Shown piece after piece: positions 7,630-38,411 of a DNA stretch of 64,000 nt (within the stretch, counting starts at the first letter, position 1; each line of letters starts with the position of its first letter). Source of the DNA: Chloroherpetonaceae bacterium (lineage in GTDB: Bacteria > Bacteroidota > Chlorobiia > Chlorobiales > Thermochlorobacteraceae); NCBI GenBank assembly GCA_033763895.1, contig JANRJQ010000004.1, positions 372,001-436,000 on the forward strand. The letters run 5' to 3'. The position numbers were made by a program, and so were the translations under genes. The notes beneath the pieces were generated by a model. That model was not told the origin of the DNA. It did not search any database and saw only the letters and a list, made by a program, of their open reading frames with translations.

Positions 7630-8832
7630 ATGAGCGAAGGAGCAAATCAAAACGCAAAGATGAAACTCGAAACCGGCTTAATTCATCTTGGCGACGAGTT
7701 CAATACCACCTCTGCTGTTGCGCCGCCAATTTGGCAAACCTCAACTTATCTTGCACCTGAAGACCCTGCGGCATTTTCGGAACTTGCCGCTTCAATCAAC
7801 CCCACCGAATTCTACTCTCGCCACGGCAACCCAACGAACGCGCAGGTTCAAGCCATCATTGCATCGCTTGAACATGCAGAAGCGGCCTTGGTTACGGCTT
7901 CCGGGATGGGTGCGGTTTCAGCGGCGGTTTTTGCATCTGTAAAAGCGGGCGAGCACGTGGTTACGCAAAAAATCCTCTATGCGGCATCGATGATTCTTTT
8001 TCGCGATCTCTTGCCGAAGTATGGCGTTGAAGTCACATTTGTAGAGGCCACCGATACCGCCGCCTTTGAAAAAGCCATTCGCCCGAATACAAAACTCATT
8101 TATCTTGAAACACCGGTGAACCCCCTTATGACGCTCACCGACTTAAAAGCCGTTTCTGCACTTGCCAAAAAACGCGGCATCACCACCATTTGCGATAATA
8201 CTTTTGCAAGCCCAATCAATCAACGGCCAATCGACTTAGGAATCGATGTGGTGATTCATAGCGCGACAAAATTTTTAGGCGGTCACTCCGATCTCACCGC
8301 CGGCGCCATTTGCGGCACAAAAGAATTTGTGAAGGCCGCGTGGCGAATGATGATTATTTTTGGCTCTTCGCTTGCTTCATTCGATTCGTGGCTGTTGCTT
8401 CGTGGGCTTCGCACGCTTTCGCTTCGAATGGAGCGAATTAACGCCAATGCGATTGCACTTGCCGACTATTTAGTTTCTCACCCCAACATTGAAACGGTTC
8501 ATTTTCCATTTTTGAAAACTCATCCTCAACTCTCTTTAGCAAAATCGCAAATGCTTGGGCCATCGGGAATGATGAGCTTTGAAGTCAGAGGTGAAAGTGA
8601 AGAGGAAAAATTCGATAATGCACAGTCGCTTCTTAAAAAACTGCGATTCCCGAAAAATGCCGTGAGCTTGGGCGGAGTGGAAACGCTGATTGTTCATCCG
8701 GCGTCAATGTGGCGATATCACTACACGCCCGAACAGCGAAAGGCATCAGGCATTGGACTGGGGCTCATTCGTCTTTCAGTAGGAATTGAGCACATCGATG
8801 ATTTAATCGGGGATTTTCGGGAGGCGCTGTGA
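7630..8832 (+). CDS. PLP-dependent trans-sulfuration enzyme (cystathionine gamma-synthase / methionine gamma-lyase family)
   Basis: This is a Cys/Met metabolism PLP enzyme of about 400 residues. The cofactor lysine is in SATKFLGGHSD, and the family motifs SRHGNPTN, ASGMGAVSAA and YLETPVNP are present. The C-terminal SVGIEHIDDLIGDF segment is also typical. Members include cystathionine gamma-synthase, gamma-lyase, O-acetylhomoserine sulfhydrylase and methionine gamma-lyase, and the motifs do not separate these. Its position 2 nt after metG hints at a methionine link. A second ATG at residue 11 (7660) is a possible alternative start. Confidence 0.88.
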   Translation: MSEGANQNAKMKLETGLIHLGDEFNTTSAVAPPIWQTSTYLAPEDPAAFSELAASINPTEFYSRHGNPTNAQVQAIIASLEHAEAALVTASGMGAVSAAVFASVKAGEHVVTQKILYAASMILFRDLLPKYGVEVTFVEATDTAAFEKAIRPNTKLIYLETPVNPLMTLTDLKAVSALAKKRGITTICDNTFASPINQRPIDLGIDVVIHSATKFLGGHSDLTAGAICGTKEFVKAAWRMMIIFGSSLASFDSWLLLRGLRTLSLRMERINANAIALADYLVSHPNIETVHFPFLKTHPQLSLAKSQMLGPSGMMSFEVRGESEEEKFDNAQSLLKKLRFPKNAVSLGGVETLIVHPASMWRYHYTPEQRKASGIGLGLIRLSVGIEHIDDLIGDFREAL

Positions 8833-8833
8833 G

Positions 8834-9121
8834 TTACTTTCGTTCAATCCAATAATCAGGCAGTCGATGATGATCTGCTATCGAAATTACTTTTATCCCG
8901 AATTGTGTTTTCTTATAAATAATTGAAAAGTGAAATTAAATACTGCTGAATTTTCGAAAATCATTTTTGTATTGAATTCCTATACTGGGAAAAGCACTAA
9001 TTTTAAATAGTATACTTTCAAATTCATCTGCAAACATTTGAGCTGCTTTAGGTGATTTTTCTTTGTAGTAAAGCAGCGCTTCGAAATACTCCTTTTCTGC
9101 TTCGGGGTGGATTTCAATCAT
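8834..9121 (-). pseudogene. ParE/RelE-family toxin interrupted by an in-frame stop
   Basis: The first 61 codons encode a RelE/ParE-type toxin start (MIEIHPEAEKEYFEALLYY; then KSPKAAQMFADEFE). The frame stops at TAA 8936-8938 after RKFSSI. Read past that stop in the same frame, the DNA continues with an excellent ParE C-terminus: FHFSIIYKKTQFGIKVISI, then ADHHRLPDYWIERK and a proper stop at 8834-8836. One nonsense codon therefore splits an otherwise complete 95-residue toxin. The antitoxin-like gene directly upstream (3 nt) is intact. Likely an inactivated toxin; a sequencing error or read-through cannot be excluded. Confidence 0.85.
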
Positions 9122-9124
9122 GAA

Positions 9125-9346
9125 TTAACCCAAAATACTTTTTGTTTTCTGTTTTAGTTCATCTATACCAATCCCTTTGACTTTGCCTGAAATCAACTCC
9201 TGATATCTTTTTTCCACCTCTTCCAACCAAGGCTCATCTTTTGCTGGAGTATCGTTTCTTGAAAGATTGAGCATAAAGATCAGTAAAGATTCAAACTCGT
9301 CCTTTTTGAGCGAGATTATTTCCTTTTCTAGTTCTTCGAGTTTCAT
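9125..9346 (-). CDS. Putative antitoxin (addiction-module component type)
   Basis: This is a small acidic and basic helical protein of 73 residues, immediately upstream of the broken ParE-type toxin. The C-terminal half (WLEEVEKRYQELISGKVKG, then IDELKQKTKSILG) resembles the short antitoxins annotated as addiction module components, which usually pair with ParE/RelE toxins. A strong ribosome site (CGGAGGAAG) lies just before the ATG and supports this start. With the toxin interrupted, the antitoxin may be a relic or may still act on toxins encoded elsewhere. Confidence 0.75.
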   Translation of the reverse strand: MKLEELEKEIISLKKDEFESLLIFMLNLSRNDTPAKDEPWLEEVEKRYQELISGKVKGIGIDELKQKTKSILG

Positions 9347-9362
9347 TCTTCCTCCGATTCAT

Positions 9363-10184
9363 TTATTTCTTGACCAATTCTGAGGCTCTTTCGGCTGCTT
9401 TTACAACGGCTTTGATTAAAGTAACACGAAGTCCGCCTTCTTCCAATTCCAAAAGCCCGTCGATTGTGCATCCGGCGGGAGTTGTAACGCTGTCTTTAAG
9501 CACGGCGGGATGAATATTGGTTTCAAGCACCAATTTTGATGCGCCGTACATTGTTTGCGCGGCAAGCAAGGTTGAGACATCGCGTGGGATTCCAAGTTTC
9601 ACGCCTGCTTCGGCAAGTGCTTCAATGACAACATAAATATATGCCGGGCCGCTTGCCGAGAGTGCCGTAACACCATCCATTAAATATTCTTCGACAATCA
9701 CCGTTTTCCCAATGGCATCAAAGAGGGTTTTTGAAAAGGCGAGTTGCTCTTCGGTCGCAAATTTTCCTTTCGAAAGCGCGGTCATTCCGGCATTGATGAC
9801 GCTCGGCGTATTTGGCATTGCACGAATGACCGGCACAGGTTTTGAGAGGCGTGTTTCGATATAGCTTGTGGTTACAGAAGCTGCCACGCTGATGAGCAGA
9901 TGTTCTTCGGTGAGAACGGAATCAATGTCGTTAAGTACGGCTTCAACGTTTTGGGGTTTTACGGCCAAGAGGATGGTTTTACAAGATTGTGCGATACTCT
10001 GGTTATTTCGCCCAAACTCAATTGAAGCGAGGGAGTTAACATTTTCGGATTGTCGTTTTAAGAGCGAACTTTCGCGGCGTACGCTTGCCATCATATCGTT
10101 GGGTGAAACGATCGCTTGCTTAATTAGTCCATTTGCAATGGCTTCTCCAAGTTTTCCATAACCGATAATTCCAAGTTTCTTCAT
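9363..10184 (-). CDS. proC: Pyrroline-5-carboxylate reductase
   Basis: ProC makes proline by NAD(P)H reduction of pyrroline-5-carboxylate. The N-terminal dinucleotide-binding motif is IGYGKLGEAIANGL. The conserved VIRAMPNTPSVINAGMTAL and ALSASGPAYIYVVIEALAEAG signatures follow, then a C-terminal DSVTTPAGCTIDGL segment. The length of 273 residues is normal. It lies 4 nt downstream of batC in the same direction, so it may ride on the Bat transcript. The proline-pathway kinase ProB is at 49586-50698; no proA was seen in the window. Confidence 0.94.
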   Translation of the reverse strand: MKKLGIIGYGKLGEAIANGLIKQAIVSPNDMMASVRRESSLLKRQSENVNSLASIEFGRNNQSIAQSCKTILLAVKPQNVEAVLNDIDSVLTEEHLLISVAASVTTSYIETRLSKPVPVIRAMPNTPSVINAGMTALSKGKFATEEQLAFSKTLFDAIGKTVIVEEYLMDGVTALSASGPAYIYVVIEALAEAGVKLGIPRDVSTLLAAQTMYGASKLVLETNIHPAVLKDSVTTPAGCTIDGLLELEEGGLRVTLIKAVVKAAERASELVKK

Positions 10185-10188
10185 TCAT

Positions 10189-11040
10189 TTACCAATCTTT
10201 TGAGTAGCGTGCACCCGAATTCTTCTTCACCTGATACTTTTTCATCATGTTTTTTTCATCTTCTTTCATTGCATCCAAAATCTTTTCTGCATCCTGTTTG
10301 CTGAATTTTTGCTCTTGAGGCTTTTGCTCCTCTTTCTGCTGATTTTGATTTTCTTGATTTTGTTGCTCCTTTTGCTCTTCCTTCTGTTGCTGATTTTGAT
10401 CTTGTTTATTCTGATCTTGTTTCTGTTCGTTTTCCTTTTTCTGCTGGTCGTTTTGGTTTTGATTGTCTTTATTCTGTTGTTTTTGCCTTTGACGCTGCTC
10501 TTCTTCCATTTCTTTCAGCATTGCTTTGGCAAATTCATAATTAACCTTGGTTTGCCTATCGCTGCTGTTGTGTGTTAAAGCCTGCTTATAATTCTTAAGT
10601 GCCTCTCGAAGCAATTCTGGCTTTTCTTCCGGTTTGGCATCTTTCGCCCGCTTAAATGCACTATTGCCAAGATTGTAATAAGCATCTGCACGAGTGGCTG
10701 CATCTATGGATTCATCGGCAGCAATTTTCTCGTATTTCTTTTGGGCATCGGTATATTTTTTTTGGCGATAGGACGCGTTGCCGGCATTAAAAGTAGCTGC
10801 GGCTTTGCCTTCGGTAGAGGCTTCCTCAGAATTTTCAATTTTTTCGTATTGACCTTTTGCCTCATCATACTCACCACGGCTGTAGGCGTTGTTCCCTTTC
10901 CGAACTTCAAAATATTGTGCCTTCAATCCGTCAGTAGAAAGGAACAGTGCTGCAATCAGAATTCCTGTTTTGAAGAGCTTCAAAACTAATTGTTCCCTTT
11001 TCTCTTGATGAAATGAGAAATGCTTTGTGAAGTGTTTCAT
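10189..11040 (-). CDS. batC: BatC-like TPR protein with Gln/Lys/Glu-rich region
   Basis: An N-terminal hydrophobic export segment (about residues 20-42, ending LKAQ) is followed by TPR repeats (NNAYSRGEYDEAKGQYEKI and similar, residues 48-175). A long low-complexity region rich in Gln, Lys, Asn and Glu (about residues 180-245) comes next, then a short helical end. This matches BatC, the TPR partner of the two von Willebrand A proteins BatA and BatB, which lie directly upstream. The low-complexity region may vary between strains. A later ATG would shorten the n-region, so the start is uncertain. Confidence 0.84.
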   Translation of the reverse strand: MKHFTKHFSFHQEKREQLVLKLFKTGILIAALFLSTDGLKAQYFEVRKGNNAYSRGEYDEAKGQYEKIENSEEASTEGKAAATFNAGNASYRQKKYTDAQKKYEKIAADESIDAATRADAYYNLGNSAFKRAKDAKPEEKPELLREALKNYKQALTHNSSDRQTKVNYEFAKAMLKEMEEEQRQRQKQQNKDNQNQNDQQKKENEQKQDQNKQDQNQQQKEEQKEQQNQENQNQQKEEQKPQEQKFSKQDAEKILDAMKEDEKNMMKKYQVKKNSGARYSKDW

Positions 11041-11060
11041 AAGATAAGATCACCTAAATT

Positions 11061-12101
11061 TTACTTTTTCACTTTCCTTATTCTTTCGCCAAGCAGAGAT
11101 TCAAGCACCAAAAGGGCGATTGCCACACCGATGAAATATTGAAATTGATCTTCGTAATCCACAGATTCTCGTGAGGCAAATTCGGTTTTTTGAAGCTTAT
11201 CAAGCTCAACTAAAATTTTATCGAAATCGGAACCGGCAGCATTGATTTGATAAAAACTCGCCCCAGATTTCTCTGCTATTCTTCTTAGCCCGTCGGGGAC
11301 AAATTTGGTCATCGCCACTTCGCCATCACTGCCGCGTTTGTAATCAATTCTATTCATTGATTTATCATAAATAGGAATTGGCGTGGCGGAAGGTGAACCA
11401 ATCCCAACTGTGTAAACCTTGACACCCTCCACCAAAGCTTCATCTACCATTTCTTCCCATCCGGCTTCGTGATCTTCTCCATCGCTAAAAATGATAATCA
11501 CCTTAGAAGGCTTATTGCCACGCGCGGATGCATCGGCACCTTCTTCAATGCTTTTGAATGCTTCAAGTGATTCGCGAATTGCAGCAGCAAAGTTTGTTCC
11601 TTGTGTTTCGATAACCTCAGGAGAAACAATATCAAGAAATAATTTGATCGAAGATTTATCGAGTGTCATCGGGCACTGCAAATACGATTGACCCGCAAAA
11701 ACAACCAGCCCGACACGGTCTCCACCTAATTGATCGATAAAACGAGAGATTTCATATTTCGCTTTTTGCAAACGGCTTGGACGAATATCCTCTGCTTGCA
11801 TGCTGTTTGAAACATCAAGCGCAATTACAACTTCAATCCCTTTACGCTTGACTTCTTTAAGCCGTGTTCCAAGCTGTGGCGCGGCATAGGCAAAAAGAAT
11901 TAAGGCTGCTGCCAAAAAAATTAAAATCAGTTTCCAAATGAGTTTCGTACGACTAACAGAGCCGGCCAGTTCCTGCATCAATTCACTATCGCCAAGCAGT
12001 TTTACCGCGGCAAACCGCCGAGATAAAAAAAACACTAGGAAGATCAATAGCGGTATTAGTGCAAATAAGTAATAAAGATGTGTTGGGTTTCCAAAACGCA
12101 T
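11061..12101 (-). CDS. batB: BatB-like von Willebrand factor A membrane protein
   Basis: Two N-terminal membrane helices (residues about 8-26 and 55-72) precede a VWA domain with a metal-dependent adhesion site, ALDVSNSMQAEDI (DxSxS), and the later motif IIFSDGEDHEAGWEE. A membrane helix near residue 325 closes the chain. This layout is that of BatA/BatB proteins of the aerotolerance operon. It shares the segment DRVGLVVFAGQSYLQCP with its neighbour (DRIGLVIFQAKAFTQCP), which shows the two are paralogues. It lies 14 nt after batA. Confidence 0.88.
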   Translation of the reverse strand: MRFGNPTHLYYLFALIPLLIFLVFFLSRRFAAVKLLGDSELMQELAGSVSRTKLIWKLILIFLAAALILFAYAAPQLGTRLKEVKRKGIEVVIALDVSNSMQAEDIRPSRLQKAKYEISRFIDQLGGDRVGLVVFAGQSYLQCPMTLDKSSIKLFLDIVSPEVIETQGTNFAAAIRESLEAFKSIEEGADASARGNKPSKVIIIFSDGEDHEAGWEEMVDEALVEGVKVYTVGIGSPSATPIPIYDKSMNRIDYKRGSDGEVAMTKFVPDGLRRIAEKSGASFYQINAAGSDFDKILVELDKLQKTEFASRESVDYEDQFQYFIGVAIALLVLESLLGERIRKVKK

Positions 12102-12115
12102 GTTTTTATCTGATT

Positions 12116-13138
12116 TTACGGTGCTTTACGGAAGCGTGTATTTGCTAATAAAATTTCAACTGCAAATAGAATCAACGCCCAAAGCAACACCTTCGAAAAT
12201 TCTTCTTTGTACTCCGTGTAGGTTTGAACTTCAACCTTTGATTTTTCAAGATTGTCAATCTCACGATAAGTTTCCTGAAGGCTCTTAAAATCGGTTGCTC
12301 TAAAATACTTTCCACCGGTTGTTTTCGCGATTCTTTCCAATCCAACATCATCCACATCGACCTTCGCGCGAATGTAACGCGTGCCATATAATGGGTCTGG
12401 AATCGGATAATTGGCGTAACCTCGCGTTCCGGCGCCAACGGTATAAACTTTGATTCCTAAGGCTGCAGCTAAATCAGCGGCTGTTTGAGGTTCAATTTCG
12501 CCGGCATTATTCTGCCCATCGGTAAGTAATATTATGAGCTTACTTTTTGCCGTTGAATTCCTTAAACGATTGGTGGCTGTTGCCAGTGCAAGACCAATTG
12601 CCGTTCCATCCTCTTGCATTTTACCGGCATTCAAGCCGCTAATAAAGCGATTGAGCAAGGTATAGTCAAGTGTCAATGGGCATTGTGTAAATGCTTTAGC
12701 TTGAAAAATCACCAGTCCGATTCGATCACTAACACGATTTCGAATAAACTCTCGGGCGACTTCCTTCGCGGCATCGATTCGATTCTTTGGCTCAAAGTCC
12801 TCGGCAAACATTGAGGTTGATAGATCCAAGCAAAGTACAATATCGATTCCCTCTGAATAAACAATTTGTTTTTGATTGGATGTTCGTGGCCTAGCAAAGG
12901 CTAAAATTAACAAAGCAAGCGTAAGCATTCGGAAGATGAAAACGCTATGACGAAAATTCTTCAATATCCCACCACGCGCACTCTTTAATATTGAAATGCT
13001 TGAAAAAATTAAGGCAGGCGTATTCCCTCGATATTCTCTAAAAAAATAAAGAATTGATAGCAAAGGAATCAAAAGTAGGAGAAACAAAAACTCCGGATTT
13101 TGAAACGAAAAATTTGCCGAACGAAATAACTCTAACAT
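12116..13138 (-). CDS. batA: BatA-like von Willebrand factor A membrane protein
   Basis: Two N-terminal membrane segments (about residues 14-32 and 63-82) are followed by a VWA domain. Its metal site is DLSTSMFAEDF (DxSxS), followed by LTDGQNNAGEI. A C-terminal membrane helix lies near residue 320. Together with batB and batC it forms the core of the Bat cluster. Its start codon directly abuts the stop of the upstream membrane protein gene, so translation is probably coupled. Confidence 0.88.
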   Translation of the reverse strand: MLELFRSANFSFQNPEFLFLLLLIPLLSILYFFREYRGNTPALIFSSISILKSARGGILKNFRHSVFIFRMLTLALLILAFARPRTSNQKQIVYSEGIDIVLCLDLSTSMFAEDFEPKNRIDAAKEVAREFIRNRVSDRIGLVIFQAKAFTQCPLTLDYTLLNRFISGLNAGKMQEDGTAIGLALATATNRLRNSTAKSKLIILLTDGQNNAGEIEPQTAADLAAALGIKVYTVGAGTRGYANYPIPDPLYGTRYIRAKVDVDDVGLERIAKTTGGKYFRATDFKSLQETYREIDNLEKSKVEVQTYTEYKEEFSKVLLWALILFAVEILLANTRFRKAP

Positions 13139-14170
13139 TTAACGCTCCTCGTTCACGGTTGAAGGGTTACGAGAATTATTCGATTCTTCCTGAAAAGAAG
13201 AATTTAGTGACGCGCTTCCTTTTGATGCCCCTGATGTTTTATCAGGCTTAAATCGAACGAGAAATTCCAATGCCTCTTGATAGCTTTCTTTGATTTCAAT
13301 TTTACTTGGCAAATATTTCGCAAATTTTACCATATCTGCTCTTTCAAAAATATTGTAAAGCCTGTTGTATTGCGCTTTTTCAACTTTCGTTTCAATGGAT
13401 TGATAAATTTCATACGACGTTTGTTCAAGAGCCAAAATTCCAAAATGATTCTCCAAAAATTCACGAATGATAAAGGAGAGTTCAAAATAAAACCGCTTCA
13501 AGTCGGCATCTGATTCAAGCTTCGAATGATATAACACATCGATTTTTTCAACCGCAATTTCATAGGCTGAGCGTTGAATAACCGGCTCAACGACTTCTTT
13601 GACTTTTCTTGAGCGAACCCATCGATAAATCCAAAAGCTCATTCCAACAAAAAGTAAAACGGCCGTCGCGATTGACGCATAGACCCACCACGGAATTGGA
13701 AGTGAGCGAATCTCTTTAATATCCTCAATATCTTTTCGGGTAGTATCTAGTAAAGAGACAACATAAACCCGACTTGGCGGGGCTTGCACAATAGCTCTCG
13801 ATACACTGTCTTTTCCTGTAAGATAGGTTAAGTTAAGAAAGGGAATCGGCTGCATTCCGGTATCAAAAACAGCAAGGGTATATTGAATTTTTTCAACCAC
13901 AAGCGACTCACGCGTTTCTCTTGGCAAATATTGAACATCCCGAATTTCTAATGGTGCAAAAGCCACAGTATCCTTTTTGGTCGGATAAAGCAAAGAGACA
14001 TCGGGCCGCTTTAATACCGTGAGTGTGTAAGTGATATCATCACCAATCGAAACCGTATCGGGATAAACATCGCTACGAACAGACGGCTGCTGTGCGTAAA
14101 GCGTCGCACAATGAAACCCTACAAAAAACGCATAAAATAAAAAGAACGGAATTATTCGCTTCATTATCAT
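13139..14170 (-). CDS. Exported single-pass membrane protein of the Bat operon
   Basis: A signal peptide (IIPFFLFYAFFVGFHCATLYAQ region) is followed by a periplasmic beta domain resembling the BatD N-terminus (DTVSIGDDITYTLTV). A membrane helix lies near residues 160-185. The cytoplasmic helical part (residues 200-310, including FIIREFLENHFGI) recalls the tail region of BatD, and the C-terminus is Ser/Asn rich. Such a protein commonly sits between the DUF58 gene and batA in Bacteroidota. No enzymatic motif is visible. Position and topology suggest a partner of BatA/BatB. Confidence 0.72.
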   Translation of the reverse strand: MIMKRIIPFFLFYAFFVGFHCATLYAQQPSVRSDVYPDTVSIGDDITYTLTVLKRPDVSLLYPTKKDTVAFAPLEIRDVQYLPRETRESLVVEKIQYTLAVFDTGMQPIPFLNLTYLTGKDSVSRAIVQAPPSRVYVVSLLDTTRKDIEDIKEIRSLPIPWWVYASIATAVLLFVGMSFWIYRWVRSRKVKEVVEPVIQRSAYEIAVEKIDVLYHSKLESDADLKRFYFELSFIIREFLENHFGILALEQTSYEIYQSIETKVEKAQYNRLYNIFERADMVKFAKYLPSKIEIKESYQEALEFLVRFKPDKTSGASKGSASLNSSFQEESNNSRNPSTVNEER

Positions 14171-33116: not shown

Positions 33117-34268
33117 CTAACAGAAAAAAACATTCAACCTTCCATTTTCGTAGGCAGCGTAATCTGTTTTTCGACCAACAAGGACATTCGGAAGCACGAT
33201 ATTTTTTCTGAAGTTATTCACCTCTATCAGCAATTCATCACCTTTGACATTCATCTGTACATGATCAATTTCAACATTTGGTAAGTAAAGTTTTAACAAA
33301 TACTTCCCATTGCTCTTCTCGATAGTATGTGTTTTGAAATCGTTATACAGGATTTCCTCCGGGAGTTCAGTTTGAAAGAGCGATTCGCCCATTTTGGATA
33401 GTGAAATATTCCCAATGACTTCATTTTCAAAATGCTTTACCTTGAAAATAGGAAGTGGATAAAAGAATTGGTCAATTTGCTTTAAGTATCTTTGCTGCTG
33501 CTCAAAAAGGCCTTTCATCGACTTTGAAAGCGCTCCTTCAGGGAATATTTTATTAACCACTACGGCATCAAGTGTATAGCCAAAAAGGTTGAGATAAGTT
33601 TGTGCTCTCAGTGCCTCGCGAATAACCATATTTTCTGGATTCACCACAATGCGATAGGACGTGACCTTTGGGTCTAACAAGTAACCGTGTAACTCTTTGA
33701 TTTGCTCGCCAATTTCGGGCATCAACTTAAAGACATTTTTCTTTGGCATAAGCTTTTCAATCAAGGGCATTGCAAAGCTGATGACCCGCGTGTGCCACGA
33801 TGCGATTTTCTTGGTGTACCATTGGTAAGAATCGGGCATCGCGAGAAGACGCATTGTTTCGCCCGTTGGCGCTGCATCAACAATTATGACATCATACTTG
33901 CCGGACTTCGACGCCTCCCAAATGTGCTTTAAGCTCATCATTTCTTCCATTCCCGGAATAATGGCAAGTTCATCAGCGACAACCTCGCTTGCACCCTCGT
34001 TCATCAGCATCGACGAAAAATAATCATGTAATAATGACCAATGATTTCTGATCTCGGCAAGCACATTGATTTCCATCGCAAAAAGATTTGGAAACACTTC
34101 GCGTGGCGAGTCACTAAGTTCTGCGCCAAATGCATCTCCAAGACTATGAGCGATATCGGTACTCATAATCAATACGCGTTTTCCTGAATTTGCAATTTTT
34201 GCCGCTGTTGCTGCTGAAACCGTCGTTTTACCAACGCCGCCTTTCCCGAGATAAATTATTATTCGCAT
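33117..34268 (-). CDS. ArsA/Get3-type ATPase with HSP20-like C-terminal domain (copy 1)
   Basis: This deviant Walker A ATPase opens [19 protein letters not shown]. Its switch I reads [12 protein letters not shown], where the usual Pro is Ile and the usual Ser is Gly, and its switch II reads [12 protein letters not shown]. The last 70 residues form a beta-rich HSP20-like extension ([19 protein letters not shown]). The only Cys is the final residue, so the Get3 zinc motif (CxxC) and the ArsA arsenic site are absent, which argues against arsenite efflux. ATG 34268 is chosen at the conserved N-terminus. The family includes factors that target tail-anchored membrane proteins. This is the last gene of the chlorosome locus. 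Confidence 0.86.
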
Positions 34269-34316
34269 CGTACCGGTGCCCTGCACCCCTTTTGAAACAT
34301 AATCGGCCTTTGCCGG

Positions 34317-35540
34317 TTAATCAATATTAATTTTAATTCTCTTATGCGCTTTTACATAAGCCTCTTTTGCATCTTGGTTTTCTTTTGCTTCATTCATATC
34401 ATTTCTCTCTTCTGCCTCACGGGGTGTTTGATTTTGACCACTATTTGTGGAATCAAATTCAGCATTGGCATGATTCGATTGAGGATTTCCGTTCGATCTT
34501 GAATTTGGAAGATTCTGATAAGTCGTCATTGCCTTAACAAAAGCGCCTAAAATTCCATCGTTTTTTACAGCTGTCGCCACGGTTTGAATGATAAAATTTT
34601 GAGCCTCTGGATTTTGAGCCACGTTTTTTACAATTTCATTCAGGGTGGAAAGTGTTGTTGAAAATCTTTCAGGGAGTTTCTCAAGATCTTCCTTTGCTTG
34701 ATTTCGATATTCTTCAGGAATATTATTCAGTAAATCTTTTGTTATTGCTTCTGCTCGTTTTAGGGAAACCATATCCAAGTTTCCCATTGCGTGAGCGCCG
34801 GGTGAATAAAATTGTTGAAATGGATTTCGCCCTTGCTGGGCTTCTGCAAATGGGTCAGGCGGAGTTTGACCGGTAGGTTTTGGATCAACACCGGCACTTC
34901 GCATATAGCGTAGTCTTTCAAGCAATGTATCTCCATATATTTTTGGGCTACTTGGATTGTGCGGTGTTAATGGATTTGAAAATGGAAAGAATGGAAACCC
35001 TGCATCGTCAGTTTCGGTCGCTGCGAAAATCGGAATTTCTCGTTGTGGTAATATTTCTTTTGCCGATGAAATCAAATTCAAAGCGGCTTCATCTGAAATT
35101 TCTGTAAGGTGAACTCCTCCATAATACGATTCTAATGCAGATTCCAATTCATAATGCAGGCGAATCAGCATTTCTGTTTCTGGAGTTGGAATAAGATCAA
35201 AAATGAGTACAATGGGCGGTTTACCTTCTCGGGTGATTGAAATATCGAGAACAGAAAAATCCCGATCTTTTACTTTCGATTTGAAGGAAACAGAACCAAG
35301 CGGGAATCGGTCAAGGTAATCTTTATTGATTCCTCTTGCCCAGATATAAATTGATTTGGAAGAAAAAATCAGATAATCATGAAAGGCAACTCCTCCAACG
35401 CGTTCATTTTTGGCTTCATAAAAAACGCCGTCAAAAACGGCAAGGGCTTCTTCTCCCTCAGCCAATAGTTTTTTTGAAAAGAACTCGCTGATGTGAGCCG
35501 CATCCGTGTGCTTCGCTGCGTAAAGACTTACCGCATTCAT
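34317..35540 (-). CDS. Unknown protein in the chlorosome/ArsA locus
   Basis: A 407-residue protein lies between csmA and the ArsA-like copy 1. The N-terminal 150 residues look like a compact alpha/beta domain (AVFDGVFYEAKNERVGGVAF, then DYLIFSSKSIYIWARG), possibly a bacterial PH-like fold. The middle is Pro/Asn rich (about 195-265), followed by a helical stretch (AEAITKDLLNNIPEEYRNQA). The C-terminus is a Glu/Asn/Lys-rich tail. No signal peptide or membrane helix is seen. ATG 35540 follows a tandem ribosome site AGGAGTAAGGAGT, which decides the start. The function is unknown; context suggests chlorosome assembly or envelope insertion. Confidence 0.75.
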   Translation of the reverse strand: MNAVSLYAAKHTDAAHISEFFSKKLLAEGEEALAVFDGVFYEAKNERVGGVAFHDYLIFSSKSIYIWARGINKDYLDRFPLGSVSFKSKVKDRDFSVLDISITREGKPPIVLIFDLIPTPETEMLIRLHYELESALESYYGGVHLTEISDEAALNLISSAKEILPQREIPIFAATETDDAGFPFFPFSNPLTPHNPSSPKIYGDTLLERLRYMRSAGVDPKPTGQTPPDPFAEAQQGRNPFQQFYSPGAHAMGNLDMVSLKRAEAITKDLLNNIPEEYRNQAKEDLEKLPERFSTTLSTLNEIVKNVAQNPEAQNFIIQTVATAVKNDGILGAFVKAMTTYQNLPNSRSNGNPQSNHANAEFDSTNSGQNQTPREAEERNDMNEAKENQDAKEAYVKAHKRIKINID

Positions 35541-35676
35541 ACTCCTTACTCCTCGCAAACGGTGGCAGGCCGAAGCACGCCACTTCTAATTATGGTTAAA
35601 ACTTAATGGCACACTTCAAAATCAATGAAGGGCAAATCAATGTTCGTAAAAGCCAATCAATCGAACTCATAACGCT

Positions 35677-35729
35677 TGCCGCATCTCTTGAAGGATGAGT
35701 ATTACAACATCACTCCAAAGTGATGCGGC
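35677..35729. other. Nested inverted repeats downstream of csmA
   Basis: An outer pair GCCGCAT (35677-35683) and ATGCGGC (35723-35729) surrounds an inner hairpin CATCACT/AGTGATG (35708-35725). They lie between the csmA stop and the next gene. There is no strong T-tract, so the structure may stabilise or attenuate the csm transcript rather than end it fully. Confidence 0.4.
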
Positions 35730-35759
35730 TACGAAAAATGCAGTACAAACGAAAGTCGT

Positions 35760-36008
35760 TTACTTTCCGAAGCGCGCTTCGATTTCTTTATCGCGTGCGG
35801 CTGTGCTGCTTGCTGTTGGTGATGAACCGCGAAGACCTGAGCCGCCGCCTGTCAAACCACCATAAAGATTTTGATTGAGGCGCATTGTACCCTTTGCGAG
35901 AGAATCAAAAATCATTCCCCCTGTGTACCAGTGACCTTCAAACATGTATTCCGAGATGCGTCCGATGCTAACTAAAACATCTGTAATTACGCCGCCACCT
36001 GCTGCCAT
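35760..36008 (-). CDS. csmA: Chlorosome baseplate protein CsmA
   Basis: CsmA binds bacteriochlorophyll a and forms the crystalline baseplate of the chlorosome. The 82 residues match known CsmA closely: GGGVITDVL, then [12 protein letters not shown], then [14 protein letters not shown]. The pigment-binding His is H26 in EGHW (H25 in Chlorobium CsmA, one residue shorter here at the N-terminus). The C-terminal tail after LRGSS (about 22 residues) resembles the part removed during maturation in green sulfur bacteria. A strong ribosome site, CTTAGGAGG, precedes ATG 36008. This gene identifies the organism as chlorosome-bearing. Confidence 0.95.
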
Positions 36009-36071
36009 AATAACCTCCTAAGATTATGAGTTAAAGAATAATTGAAAACAAACAGGTTGCAAATGTGCGCC

Positions 36072-36082
36072 CCGTTTGGCAC
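36072..36082. repeat. 11-bp element repeated inverted at 36521-36531
   Basis: CCGTTTGGCAC here is the exact reverse complement of GTGCCAAACGG at 36521-36531. Both lie in noncoding DNA on either side of the middle chlorosome-protein gene. They may be binding sites or base-pair in the transcript; chance cannot be excluded. Confidence 0.35.
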
Positions 36083-36101
36083 TACTAAAAAATTGATTCC
36101 G

Positions 36102-36419
36102 CTACTCTGCTTTTGGTGCAGGTTTTGGTTTAATTGATATTGTTGTTGGTGCTTTAGCAGCTTCTGTTTCAGAATCTTTACGAACAACTTTATCTGTTCT
36201 AACATTGAGCCCCAAAATAGCATCGAGCGATTTGGCACCGAGCTTTTCACTCGCGCCGGGCCTTGTAAAATCAGCAAATTCATTTGAAACATCTGAAACG
36301 GCACCAAAGGTATTGGTCAGTGTATGAAACACGGTATCAATTGCACCTAAAACGAAAAACGTGGCCTGTTCAGTAATTTCAAGTTTCCTGAATTCTTTGC
36401 CCAAATTTTGATTATCCAT
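36102..36419 (-). CDS. Small chlorosome envelope protein, CsmC/CsmD-like
   Basis: A 105-residue protein lies directly upstream of csmA, where Chlorobium has csmC. The N-terminal half is an amphipathic and hydrophobic helix region (KEFRKLEITEQATFFVLGA, then DTVFHTLTNTFGAVSDV), and the C-terminus is Ala/Pro/Lys rich. It aligns by eye with the neighbouring gene at 36618-37061 (KEFRKLEI/KEFKAMAL, FFVLGAID/FLAEAAIL), suggesting paralogues. A ribosome site (CGAGAGGT) lies close before ATG 36419. Assignment to CsmC/D rests mainly on position and helix pattern; a motif-based search would decide. Confidence 0.65.
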   Translation of the reverse strand: MDNQNLGKEFRKLEITEQATFFVLGAIDTVFHTLTNTFGAVSDVSNEFADFTRPGASEKLGAKSLDAILGLNVRTDKVVRKDSETEAAKAPTTISIKPKPAPKAE

Positions 36420-36617
36420 TGTACCTCTCGTTTTATCCTCTAAAAACTTAACTTCTTTATTACTCTTCGCTTGACATCAATCAGTATTCATTTGCAATTG
36501 AAGCGGAAACAAAGTGTCTTGTGCCAAACGGTTTGCTCCCGCTTCAAAATGCTGGTGCTTCCTTTGTCAAAGCAATTAAGCACGCTCTTAAAAAAAAGAA
36601 CAATCAAAAAAATTGAA

Positions 36618-37061
36618 TTAATTACCTTTTTCAGGTGTCGCTGAGCCGGTTGTAGGTTTTACCGCTTTTTGTGCCGCACTTGCAACATCATTGACAACTT
36701 CAACAGCCTTAGCCGCAGCTTCGCTCACTCCTTTAGCGACATCAGCTGTTGCGGTATCAACCGTTTTTGCGACATCCTTCATTACTGTGCCTGCTGCTTT
36801 ACCCGCATCTTTTACGGTAATCACGACACGATTAACCGTTTGTGCTGCCGGACTTTGTCCATCTCCGCCGGTTATTCCGACACTCTTGGTAAGGTTTTCT
36901 GTCGCTGAAGTAACGCCTTCAACCACATCGCCAATGAGATTTAAAGTACCGACAATCGCTGATTGACCCGTCAAGATGGCCGCTTCTGCTAAAAACGCCA
37001 TTCGATCGCCAAGCGCCATCGCCTTGAATTCTTTCCGTAGTGTTTCATATGATTCTGTCAT
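36618..37061 (-). CDS. Second small chlorosome envelope-like protein
   Basis: ATG 37061 is chosen because the strong ribosome site GCAGAGGAGG lies just before it; the frame extends upstream to 37151 but that part is probably leader. The 147 residues have an N-terminal helix (ESYETLRKEFKAMALGDRM), a hydrophobic Ala/Gly segment (AFLAEAAILTGQSAIVGTL) and a long Ala/Val/Lys coiled stretch with pseudo-repeats. It aligns by eye with the next gene (36102-36419), so both belong to one envelope protein family. Functions in the chlorosome envelope are inferred from place in the operon. Confidence 0.62.
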   Translation of the reverse strand: MTESYETLRKEFKAMALGDRMAFLAEAAILTGQSAIVGTLNLIGDVVEGVTSATENLTKSVGITGGDGQSPAAQTVNRVVITVKDAGKAAGTVMKDVAKTVDTATADVAKGVSEAAAKAVEVVNDVASAAQKAVKPTTGSATPEKGN

Positions 37062-37175
37062 AACGGCCTCCTCTGCCTTTAATTGTGCGACTTCACGCAC
37101 CGTTGTTGTTTTTAAAGATCTAAATTGATACTGCTGTTTGATACTACACACCTTTTTCAGCCTTATTAGTTACTC

Positions 37176-38411
37176 TCATGCCTGAGCTCCAAGGGCATGA
37201 TAATGACCATTGATTACCGCCGGCTGCACTGACCGACCGATTGCAAAGGGAATCGTCAACCATTTTTCTTTATACGACGCATTTCCCGGCTCAACTCCTG
37301 CTAAAACGAGTGGTAATGACACAATTTTTCTTTGATTCCCCAATTGAATAAAAAGCTCATCGCCAGAAACCCAACTTTGAATATCACTTGCATCTGCAAA
37401 AGGCAATTTTACATGAACTTCACAAAGATTTGCTTTTCGCTCAAATCGAATCGGTGATTCTTCATACATCATTGCCGCAGGATCGGTTTCCTGATAAACA
37501 TCCCTTGCAAGTTTTGATAACGCTTTGAAACCAATGACTTCCTCATCATAAAGATTTACTTTTTTAATGGGAATCGGTGAAAAAGCATTTTCAATTTCAG
37601 TGATGTATTTTTTCTGAACCCCTTTCCACTTTTCTAAGTATCCGCTGTCTTGCTCAGAATTCAAGAGTTTATTTACTGTGACCATATCAACCTTAAATCC
37701 GTAAAGATTAAGGTAGGTCAGGGCACGCATTGTTTCCTTAATCACCATTTTTTCGGCATTCATAACAAGCCTTACGGAAGCATTCTTTTCATCGGTTAAA
37801 ATGGCTTTGACACCTTCCAAATCATTGAACATGTTATCAACCCCTTTCATCACATCTTCATCGGGAACCATACTTGATAATTTATCCGACATTTTTGAAA
37901 GCGGCCTTGCTATTGGCTTTATAAAGAACTTTTCGACATTTCTCGCGACTTTCATCCCCCATCCTAACATCTCAGGTAAAGAAAGCAAACGAAGCGTTTC
38001 TCCTGTTGGCGCGGTATCAAGTATCACCGCATCATACCTTCCCGAATACTTGTATCGCTTAACTCTCATAAGTGCAAAGAGCTCTTCCATACCCGGGAGA
38101 ATGGTCATTTCATCCATCATTAAATCTGCCGGCATCCCTTGTGCCATCAGCATCCTGAGGAAATATTTCTGAACCAATTCCCAATTTTCTTTCAAGTCGA
38201 TGTAAGGATTTACCTCGATCGCCTCTAAATTCTCGGCTACTTTTTTTACTTCACCACTTAGTTGAACATCAATCGAATCGGAAAGGCTGTGAGCCGGATC
38301 GGTTGACATGATAAGTGTCCGATATCCCAATTCCGACAATCTTAGCGCTGTTGCTGCTGCGATACTTGTCTTTCCGACGCCGCCTTTGCCTGTAAATGTA
38401 AGAATGCGCAT
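37176..38411 (-). CDS. ArsA/Get3-type ATPase with HSP20-like C-terminal domain (copy 2)
   Basis: The canonical deviant Walker A ([19 protein letters not shown]), switch I (STDPAHSLSDSIDV) and switch II (DTAPTGETLRLL) are all present, unlike copy 1, in which switch I is altered. The last 80 residues form an HSP20-like beta domain (CEVHVKLPFADASDIQSWV). There is a single Cys, so neither a zinc CxxC nor the ArsA metal site exists. It is the first gene of the run that continues into the csm-like genes, csmA and the second ATPase. Family members act in targeting hydrophobic proteins, and a role with chlorosome or membrane proteins is inferred. Confidence 0.88.
   Translation of the reverse strand: MRILTFTGKGGVGKTSIAAATALRLSELGYRTLIMSTDPAHSLSDSIDVQLSGEVKKVAENLEAIEVNPYIDLKENWELVQKYFLRMLMAQGMPADLMMDEMTILPGMEELFALMRVKRYKYSGRYDAVILDTAPTGETLRLLSLPEMLGWGMKVARNVEKFFIKPIARPLSKMSDKLSSMVPDEDVMKGVDNMFNDLEGVKAILTDEKNASVRLVMNAEKMVIKETMRALTYLNLYGFKVDMVTVNKLLNSEQDSGYLEKWKGVQKKYITEIENAFSPIPIKKVNLYDEEVIGFKALSKLARDVYQETDPAAMMYEESPIRFERKANLCEVHVKLPFADASDIQSWVSGDELFIQLGNQRKIVSLPLVLAGVEPGNASYKEKWLTIPFAIGRSVQPAVINGHYHALGAQA

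What the first reader, a model, noticed from the sequence alone, without database searches (positions are those of the whole stretch)
33117..38411. Chlorosome protein genes bracketed by two ArsA/Get3-type ATPases with HSP20-like tails
One strand carries ArsA-like copy 2, two small csm-like genes, csmA, an unknown gene, and ArsA-like copy 1. Both ATPases have the deviant Walker A and a C-terminal HSP20-like domain, and both lack the CxxC zinc motif and the Cys arsenic site. Get3-type ATPases deliver hydrophobic proteins to membranes. Chlorosome envelope proteins are small, hydrophobic and must reach a lipid monolayer organelle. A dedicated ATPase pair for chlorosome envelope targeting is a testable idea. 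Copy 1 has an altered switch I ([12 protein letters not shown]), so the pair may be asymmetric.
Basis: partly seen in the sequence, partly recalled or inferred. Interest (0 to 1): 0.75.

Follow-up and report, generated by a model that had tools for sequence, protein, structure and literature searches.

The report
Conserved ATPase module for chlorosome assembly
The gene for the base protein of the chlorosome, the light-harvesting organelle of green bacteria, travels in nearly every genome examined with the same chaperone-type ATPase and a never-described membrane-docking-type protein, which points to a dedicated but untested machine for building this organelle.

Summary
The window holds Get3d-csmC-Y-csmA-X-Get3d on one strand. 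Both ATPases are Get3d-type: ArsA fold, C-terminal alpha-crystallin domain, no CxxC.

The block is colinear in 62 Chlorobiota loci; the rest are cut by contig ends, bar one missing downstream ATPase. A related block (Get3d-csmA-X, usually X2-Get3d) flanks csmA in 31 Chloroflexota loci, including two with a divergent csmA, one of them 'Ca. Chlorohelix' (type I reaction centre). In class Chloroflexia, X occurs in 33/33 csmA-positive and 0/117 csmA-negative genomes; in Bacteroidota in 47/50 Chlorobia and 0/148 others.

Two corrections. The shared core is the upstream ATPase plus the 'unknown gene' X; the downstream ATPase is not orthologous between the phyla. X is the new part: a predicted PH-fold domain plus a disordered tail with basic-flanked I-x-I/V motifs, the known ligand of alpha-crystallin pockets. 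The csmC-like Y has them too; the ATPases lack them.

I propose that X and Y tether Get3d, through its alpha-crystallin domain, to the membrane or chlorosome, where it loads envelope proteins. Dedication is well supported by genomics; cargo and binding are inferred. Acidobacteriota were not reached.

The parts
37176..38411 (-).
   Evidence: PF02374 E 1e-102 and PF17886 E 1e-16; AlphaFold model best matches NosGet3d 8egk over full length; csmA-linked
37245..37421 (-). alpha-crystallin (ArsA_HSP20) domain of the upstream ATPase, residues 331-389
   Evidence: PF17886; no I/V-x-I/V motif after its last strand in 65/66 Chlorobiota orthologs
36618..37061 (-). csmC, chlorosome envelope protein C, 147 aa from ATG (ORF open from GTG 37151)
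   Evidence: PF11098 E 4e-40; start from SD sequence and orthologs
36102..36419 (-). Y, small CsmC-like protein, 105 aa, with a basic I-x-I tail
   Evidence: N-terminus related to CsmC (hhalign E 7.6e-6); I[PS][IV][KR] in the tail of 13/16 homologs; present in non-Chlorobiaceae Chlorobia
36129..36140 (-). ISIK motif in the tail of Y
   Evidence: sequence; aligns with IPIK/IPVK in orthologs
35760..36008 (-). csmA, chlorosome baseplate protein, 82 aa
   Evidence: PF02043 E 2e-26
35678..35729 (-). Hairpin just downstream of csmA; perhaps the end or stabiliser of a csmA transcript (inferred)
   Evidence: RNA fold z = -3.3 against shuffles
34317..35540 (-). X, uncharacterised protein, 407 aa from ATG: PH-fold domain, helical middle, disordered tail
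   Evidence: No Pfam or PDB sequence match; AlphaFold and Foldseek; co-occurrence with csmA
35013..35540 (-). PH-superfamily domain of X, residues 1-176
   Evidence: pLDDT block means above 90 for residues 1-170; top Foldseek PDB hits are PH or PH-like domains, best E 2e-4
34320..34343 (-). C-terminal KRIKINID motif of X (basic-flanked I-x-I)
   Evidence: sequence; 65/65 Chlorobiota X and 26/26 Chloroflexota X2 have 1-7 such motifs against 0.35-0.42 in shuffles
33117..34268 (-).
   Evidence: PF02374 E 3e-83 and PF17886 E 2e-19; at this site only in Chlorobiota
33123..33311 (-). alpha-crystallin domain of the downstream ATPase
   Evidence: PF17886

Best explanation
The block encodes a chlorosome-biogenesis module. 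X binds membrane or chlorosome-monolayer lipid through its PH-fold domain. The I-x-I/V motifs in its disordered tail, and those in Y, dock into the alpha-crystallin domains of the two Get3d ATPases, whose own C-termini lack such a motif. This brings the ATPase dimers to the growing chlorosome, where ATP-driven opening and closing of their hydrophobic chamber hands over small amphipathic or hydrophobic envelope proteins (CsmA, CsmC-type). Shown by sequence: gene identity, conserved linkage, co-occurrence of X with csmA, domain architecture, conserved motifs. Inferred: chlorosome dedication, motif docking, lipid binding, cargo. The upstream ATPase is the common core; the second ATPase was recruited separately in each phylum, so a two-ATPase arrangement appears useful but not obligatory.
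For: Linkage: U-csmC-(Y)-csmA-X-A1 in 62 Chlorobiota loci, the other loci limited by contig ends except L063; U-csmA-X(-X)-B(-C) in 29 Chloroflexota loci and U-csmA-X-X in two Chlorohelix-type loci. Flanking genes are not conserved. X is in exactly the 33 csmA-positive genomes of 150 in the Chloroflexus class, 0/117 others, p = 6e-34 before correcting for kinship; 47/50 Chlorobia and 0/148 other Bacteroidota. Upstream ATPase: 61-100% identity in the 33 csmA-positive genomes plus G241, whose block is broken by contig ends; every other copy is 48% or less. Clade of 21 rows, support 99/96, with no copy from a csmA-lacking genome except G241. Motifs: 65/65, 26/26 and an IPLR-type motif in 25/25 X proteins; background 25/577 other ORFs; in-cis I-x-I absent from ATPase tails. 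I-x-I motifs dock into alpha-crystallin pockets (PMC3158665), and IPV motifs of BAG3 bind HspB8 from a partner protein (PMC10273338). Get3d has ATPase activity and binds a TA protein (PMC10248533).
Against: No binding, localisation or mutant data. CsmA and CsmC are not tail-anchored. The Get3d alpha-crystallin domain packs against the ATPase dimer and lacks oligomerisation features (PMC10248533), so its groove may be blocked. Basic-rich tails could instead bind lipid or acidic headgroups. In G089 (L063) the downstream ATPase is not within 1 kb of X. Chloracidobacterium could not be reached. The X model has high confidence only for residues 1-176.
Confidence: 0.5

Rival explanations
1. The ATPase is a pigment, quinone or lipid carrier rather than a protein targeter: its hydrophobic chamber carries bacteriochlorophyll or quinone to CsmA and the chlorosome core, and X anchors the hand-over at the membrane.
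For: Unidentified density was reported in the NosGet3d hydrophobic chamber (PMC10248533). In G035 a second copy, 88% identical to the C. tepidum upstream ATPase, lies next to BchU (TIGR02716 E 2e-145) and radical-SAM genes, with no csm gene in reach. In G117 a chlorophyll synthase (ChlG/BchG) gene is divergent about 330 bp upstream of the module.
Against: The tight, universal linkage is to csmA and X, not to pigment genes. No Get3 or ArsA protein is known to carry pigment (own knowledge).
Confidence: 0.2
2. General chaperone with no chlorosome-specific role; the genes share an operon only because all are expressed under phototrophic growth.
For: Get3d-type ATPases also occur in non-phototrophs and non-chlorosome phototrophs such as a genome of Roseiflexus size, and Chlorobia mostly carry about 5-9 ArsA_HSP20 hits each.
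Against: The csmA-linked ortholog is limited to csmA-bearing genomes and the linkage has persisted across two phyla while flanking genes changed; X was not found outside csmA-bearing lineages.
Confidence: 0.17
3. Chlorosome positioning or inheritance system, in the manner of ParA/McdA for carboxysomes: the SIMIBI ATPase cycles on the membrane and X or Y are the adaptors on the organelle.
For: The ATPases share the deviant Walker A of the MinD/ParA class and X has a membrane-docking type of fold.
Against: Family, fold and length place them with Get3/ArsA rather than ParA/MinD.
Confidence: 0.06

Closest known systems
Get3d (Barlow et al. 2023, PMC10248533; NosGet3d 3IGF/8EGK, AtGet3d 8ELF; NCBIfam NF050088)
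   Same: Get3/ArsA ATPase domain with C-terminal alpha-crystallin domain, deviant Walker A, no CxxC; best full-length structural match. The paper already lists green sulfur and nonsulfur bacteria as having Get3d with well-conserved switch loops.
   Different: Score 145-155 against the NosAFP equivalog cut-off of 325. The paper does not mention chlorosomes; no csmA linkage, PH-fold partner or I-x-I motifs appear in the passages read.
Cytosolic Get3/TRC40 (yeast, archaeal 3ZQ6)
   Same: Best PDB sequence match is archaeal Get3/TRC40; TIGR00345 above cut-off.
   Different: No CxxC zinc motif; has an alpha-crystallin domain; no Get1/2/4/5 partner identified.
ArsA arsenite-pump ATPase
   Same: Same Pfam ATPase family PF02374.
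   Different: Single ATPase half, one Cys, not in an ars operon; far below the TIGR04291 cut-off (105 or less against 650).
BAG3-HSPB8 (IPV motifs docking on an alpha-crystallin protein in trans)
   Same: A partner protein with I-x-V/I motifs, and an alpha-crystallin domain as receiver (PMC10273338).
   Different: Here the receiver is fused to an ATPase; binding not tested; no sequence relation.
CsmC/CsmD chlorosome envelope family
   Same: csmC is PF11098; the N-terminus of Y aligns with it.
   Different: Y has an added basic IPI/IPV tail in most orthologs.

Membership tests
Get3d | Get3/ArsA ATPase domain followed by C-terminal alpha-crystallin domain | tested here: met
   PF02374 and PF17886 in both proteins; model of the upstream ATPase matches NosGet3d over 403 columns
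Get3d | Deviant Walker A GKGGhGK[ST] | tested here: met
   GKGGVGKT in 65/66 Chlorobiota and 27/28 Chloroflexota upstream ATPases and in 64/64 downstream orthologs; the two misses have an odd N-terminus in the mechanical ORF
Get3d | No CxxC zinc motif | tested here: met
   0 of 94 upstream and 0 of 64 downstream proteins
Get3d | NCBIfam equivalog NF050088 (NosAFP) cut-off | tested here: not met
   144.9 and 155.2 bits against 325: relatives of the cyanobacterial branch, not equivalogs of it
Get3d | Tail-anchored protein binding and slow ATPase activity | not testable with these tools
   needs purified protein
ArsA arsenite pump ATPase | Two ATPase halves, Cys metalloid site, ars operon context | tested here: not met
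   single half of 383-411 aa, 1 Cys, csm operon
Cytosolic Get3 | CxxC zinc-bridged dimer | tested here: not met
   no CxxC
PH-superfamily protein (X) | Seven-strand sheet capped by C-terminal helix | tested here: met
   AlphaFold strands 32-118 then helix 119-140, pLDDT mostly above 90; top Foldseek PDB hits are PH/PH-like; target-normalised TM-scores only up to about 0.5-0.6, so fold level only
PH-superfamily protein (X) | Phosphoinositide or lipid binding | not testable with these tools
   needs binding assay
alpha-crystallin I-x-I/V ligand (X and Y tails) | Conserved I-x-I/V in a disordered tail | tested here: met
   low pLDDT tail
alpha-crystallin I-x-I/V ligand (X and Y tails) | Docking in the beta4/beta8 pocket | not testable with these tools

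The most novel reading that the evidence does not exclude
CsmA is not the only chlorosome-linked protein common to different phyla: a Get3d ATPase and a PH-fold/I-x-I adaptor form a core chlorosome-building machine as old as CsmA itself, shared with it by Chlorobiota and Chloroflexota regardless of reaction-centre type. It works by a new arrangement in which an alpha-crystallin domain on an ATPase is the docking site for organelle adaptors.
Probability: 0.4. Interest if true: 0.9.

Novelty: new variant of a known kind. Interest (0 to 1): 0.8.

Why it matters
How chlorosomes are built is unknown; budding and aggregation models compete (PMC9316378). [quoted passage not shown] Here two further genes match csmA in distribution in two phyla and sit beside it. 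They name a candidate machine and give concrete mutants and peptides to test. The module also offers a first candidate partner and a possible job for the alpha-crystallin domain of Get3d, whose role in plants and cyanobacteria is described as unclear (PMC10248533).

Tried and rejected
Arsenite efflux: rejected (single half, 1 Cys, no ars genes). 'Get3d is photosynthesis-specific': rejected as a family statement, since ArsA_HSP20 hits occur in many non-phototrophs (weak hits there may be plain small heat-shock proteins); only the csmA-linked clade is restricted. ATPase pair as the conserved unit: rejected by the tree. The I-x-I motif as a general mark of genes beside any Get3d paralog: the own-genome paralog at C7 has a neighbour starting ...RTKIPIRQ, but the Chloroherpeton-size genome's counterpart lacks it. 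csmE-type csmA paralogs lie about 3-5 kb from another divergent Get3d in several Chlorobiaceae, but with unrelated genes between and on opposite strands, so I drew no conclusion. Papers on C. tepidum Csm proteins, the Chloracidobacterium envelope and Thermochlorobacter were not held. No Acidobacteriota locus came from the one genome scan. X is missing from 3 of 50 Chlorobia: in G017 the contig ends just after csmA; in G050 and G039 the csmA found is the csmE type and the module was not found (G039 only partly read), so gap or loss is unresolved.
Full report
WHAT IS THERE. On the minus strand of the window, 5' to 3': ATPase U (37176-38411), csmC (ATG 37061 to 36618), Y (36419-36102), csmA (36008-35760), X (ATG 35540 to 34317) and ATPase A1 (ATG 34268 to 33117). 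Gaps are 48-219 bases. Pfam assigns PF02374 plus PF17886 to both ATPases, PF11098 to csmC and PF02043 to csmA; X and Y have no significant family. The upstream genes (SIR2, TPR) and the downstream gene (response regulator-kinase) are not part of the conserved block. A hairpin follows csmA (z = -3.3); chlorosome genes are known to give mono- and dicistronic transcripts (PMC12214013), so a partial terminator or stabiliser is plausible but inferred.

THE LINKAGE TEST. csmA is in 96 of 98 genomes of the window's class. In 16 regions from 15 genomes of all four families the block recurs colinearly, with ortholog identities of 61-73% for U and A1 against 35-40% between the two. A scan of named genomes with a CsmA alignment returned 80 loci: 28 Chloroflexota, the rest Chlorobiota apart from one contig binned as Latescibacterota. 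A uniform gene-order reading of 100 csmA loci gave U-csmC-csmA-X-A1 in 48 and U-csmC-Y-csmA-X-A1 in 14 Chlorobiota loci; U-csmA-X(-X)-B(-C) in 29 Chloroflexota loci; and U-csmA-X-X in two more. The remaining loci are cut by contig ends, except L063 (G089), where A1 is not found within the 1 kb left after X. No inversion was seen. The two U-csmA-X-X loci have divergent csmA.

CO-OCCURRENCE. Among 150 genomes of the class that holds Chloroflexus, 33 have csmA. The same 33, and no other, have X: 33/33 against 0/117, p = 6e-34 if genomes were independent, which they are not. In the window's phylum X is in 47 of 50 Chlorobia and 0 of 148 others. Of the three Chlorobia without it, one has its contig ending just after csmA; in the other two neither module csmA nor X was found. 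Queried with a Chloroflexus U protein, the same 33 genomes plus G241 have a match at 61% identity or more, and everything else is at 48% or less. In G241, U and the downstream B copy each stop at contig ends, consistent with csmA-X1-X2 falling in the assembly gap.

EVOLUTION OF THE ATPASES. In a maximum-likelihood tree of 56 copies the csmA-linked U proteins of both phyla fall in one clade (21 rows, support 99/96), together with extra Chlorobia paralogs. Apart from G241 no genome without csmA contributes to it. The downstream partners differ: Chlorobiota A1 groups (100/100) with a general Chloroflexota Get3d found also in a genome of Roseiflexus size and in other csmA-lacking genomes, whereas Chloroflexota B groups with a different Chlorobia paralog. 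So U plus X is the shared core, and the second ATPase was added separately. A third Chloroflexota copy (C) has lost the P-loop. The order of branches within the U clade is weakly resolved, so I do not claim a direction of transfer. Only the best-scoring copy of each sampled csmA-lacking genome entered the tree; one search covers the rest by identity.

WHAT X IS. An AlphaFold model from 36 sequences has pLDDT mostly above 90 for residues 1-176, a helical middle and a disordered tail. Foldseek against PDB returns PH and PH-like domains at the top (best E 2e-4). Sequence searches find nothing solved. The tail differs greatly in length (407 aa in the window, 680 aa in the C. tepidum-size genome) but keeps a short motif: basic residues, I/V/L-x-I/V, basic residue. 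The C. tepidum-size genome has five copies of the RRKKI[SAQ]IK type; the window has KRIKINID; Chloroflexus X2 has RRIAVR and RRAISVRR. Counts: 65/65 Chlorobiota X (mean 3.0, shuffled 0.35), 26/26 Chloroflexota X2 (3.15 against 0.42), and an IPLR-type motif in 25/25 X1. Under a stricter rule 58/64 Chlorobiota X tails have it, and 25 of 577 other ORFs do in their last 60 residues. The tail of Y holds the textbook IPI/IPV version in most homologs (13 of 16 with I[PS][IV][KR]; ISIK in the window), missing in the short Chloroherpeton-type forms. The ATPases have an alpha-crystallin domain but almost never an I-x-I after it (1/66, 2/28, 0/64).

MECHANISM. In small heat-shock proteins a C-terminal I-x-I docks into pockets of the alpha-crystallin domain (PMC3158665), and a separate partner protein, BAG3, uses IPV motifs to bind HspB8 (PMC10273338). 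An operon that encodes two alpha-crystallin ATPases without the motif, and two other proteins that carry it, suggests docking in trans. With a PH-fold domain on X and a CsmC-like start on Y, the simplest reading is that X and Y tether Get3d dimers to the membrane or to the chlorosome envelope, where the ATPases load envelope proteins. Shown: anatomy, linkage, distribution, motif conservation. Inferred: docking, lipid binding, cargo. Get3d homologs hydrolyse ATP and bind a tail-anchored protein even without the alpha-crystallin domain, whose role is called unclear (PMC10248533). CsmA and CsmC are not tail-anchored, so the cargo class would be new. A pigment- or quinone-carrier role is the strongest rival: a close extra copy of U in one Chlorobium genome sits beside BchU and radical-SAM genes, and a chlorophyll synthase gene lies divergently next to the module in G117.

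COMPARISON. By fold the upstream ATPase is a Get3d: NosGet3d is the top Foldseek hit over 403 columns (model mean pLDDT 75.5). It falls below the NosAFP equivalog cut-off, so it belongs to a separate branch. Green sulfur and nonsulfur Get3d were already known as such, but that paper does not mention chlorosomes. I found no held paper that connects chlorosomes with ArsA-type targeting, Get3 or a PH-type protein; subscription papers were not available, so earlier notice of the neighbouring arsA genes is possible. [quoted passage not shown] X has not been shown to be in chlorosomes.

LIMITS. csmA is used as a proxy for chlorosomes. Acidobacteriota were not reached. No complex could be modelled. 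Genomes are related, so counts overstate independence, although two phyla and both reaction-centre types agree.

Noticed in passing
L268 (G035:C3) 7903-13707: A second copy of the upstream Get3d (88% to the C. tepidum protein) lies next to a radical-SAM gene, bchU (TIGR02716) and a BchE-like gene in a Chlorobium genome, suggesting a link to bacteriochlorophyll synthesis.
   Followed up: partly
L147 6992-8008 (G117): A chlorophyll synthase (ChlG/BchG) gene lies divergently about 330 bp upstream of the Get3d-csmA-X-X module in a Chlorohelix-type genome.
   Followed up: partly
L067 14132-15247 and L148 12713-13816: A third ATPase-like protein in the Chloroflexota block keeps the Get3d outline but has lost the P-loop; it may be a pseudo-ATPase partner.
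   Followed up: partly
L177 8350-10293 ('Ca. Chlorohelix' chromosome 2): A third X-like protein (647 aa) away from csmA, ending in repeated PKRIKLGK-type motifs.
   Followed up: no
L265, L266, L269-L272: The csmE-type csmA paralog of Chlorobiaceae lies about 3-5 kb from another, divergent Get3d gene on the opposite strand.
   Followed up: partly
L005 2817-3542 (own genome, C7): The gene after another Get3d paralog starts with ...PIRTKIPIRQ, an I-x-I motif at the N-terminus of a membrane FeS-like protein; the motif is not kept in the Chloroherpeton-size genome.
   Followed up: partly
L067 17179-17967: A 262-aa Chloroflexus protein near the block has a GHW stretch like CsmA and an RRIKVVAD motif; it has no Pfam family and could be an unlisted chlorosome protein.
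   Followed up: no
window 35678-35729 (-): Strong hairpin just after csmA, possibly a transcript end or stabiliser that raises csmA over its neighbours.
   Followed up: partly
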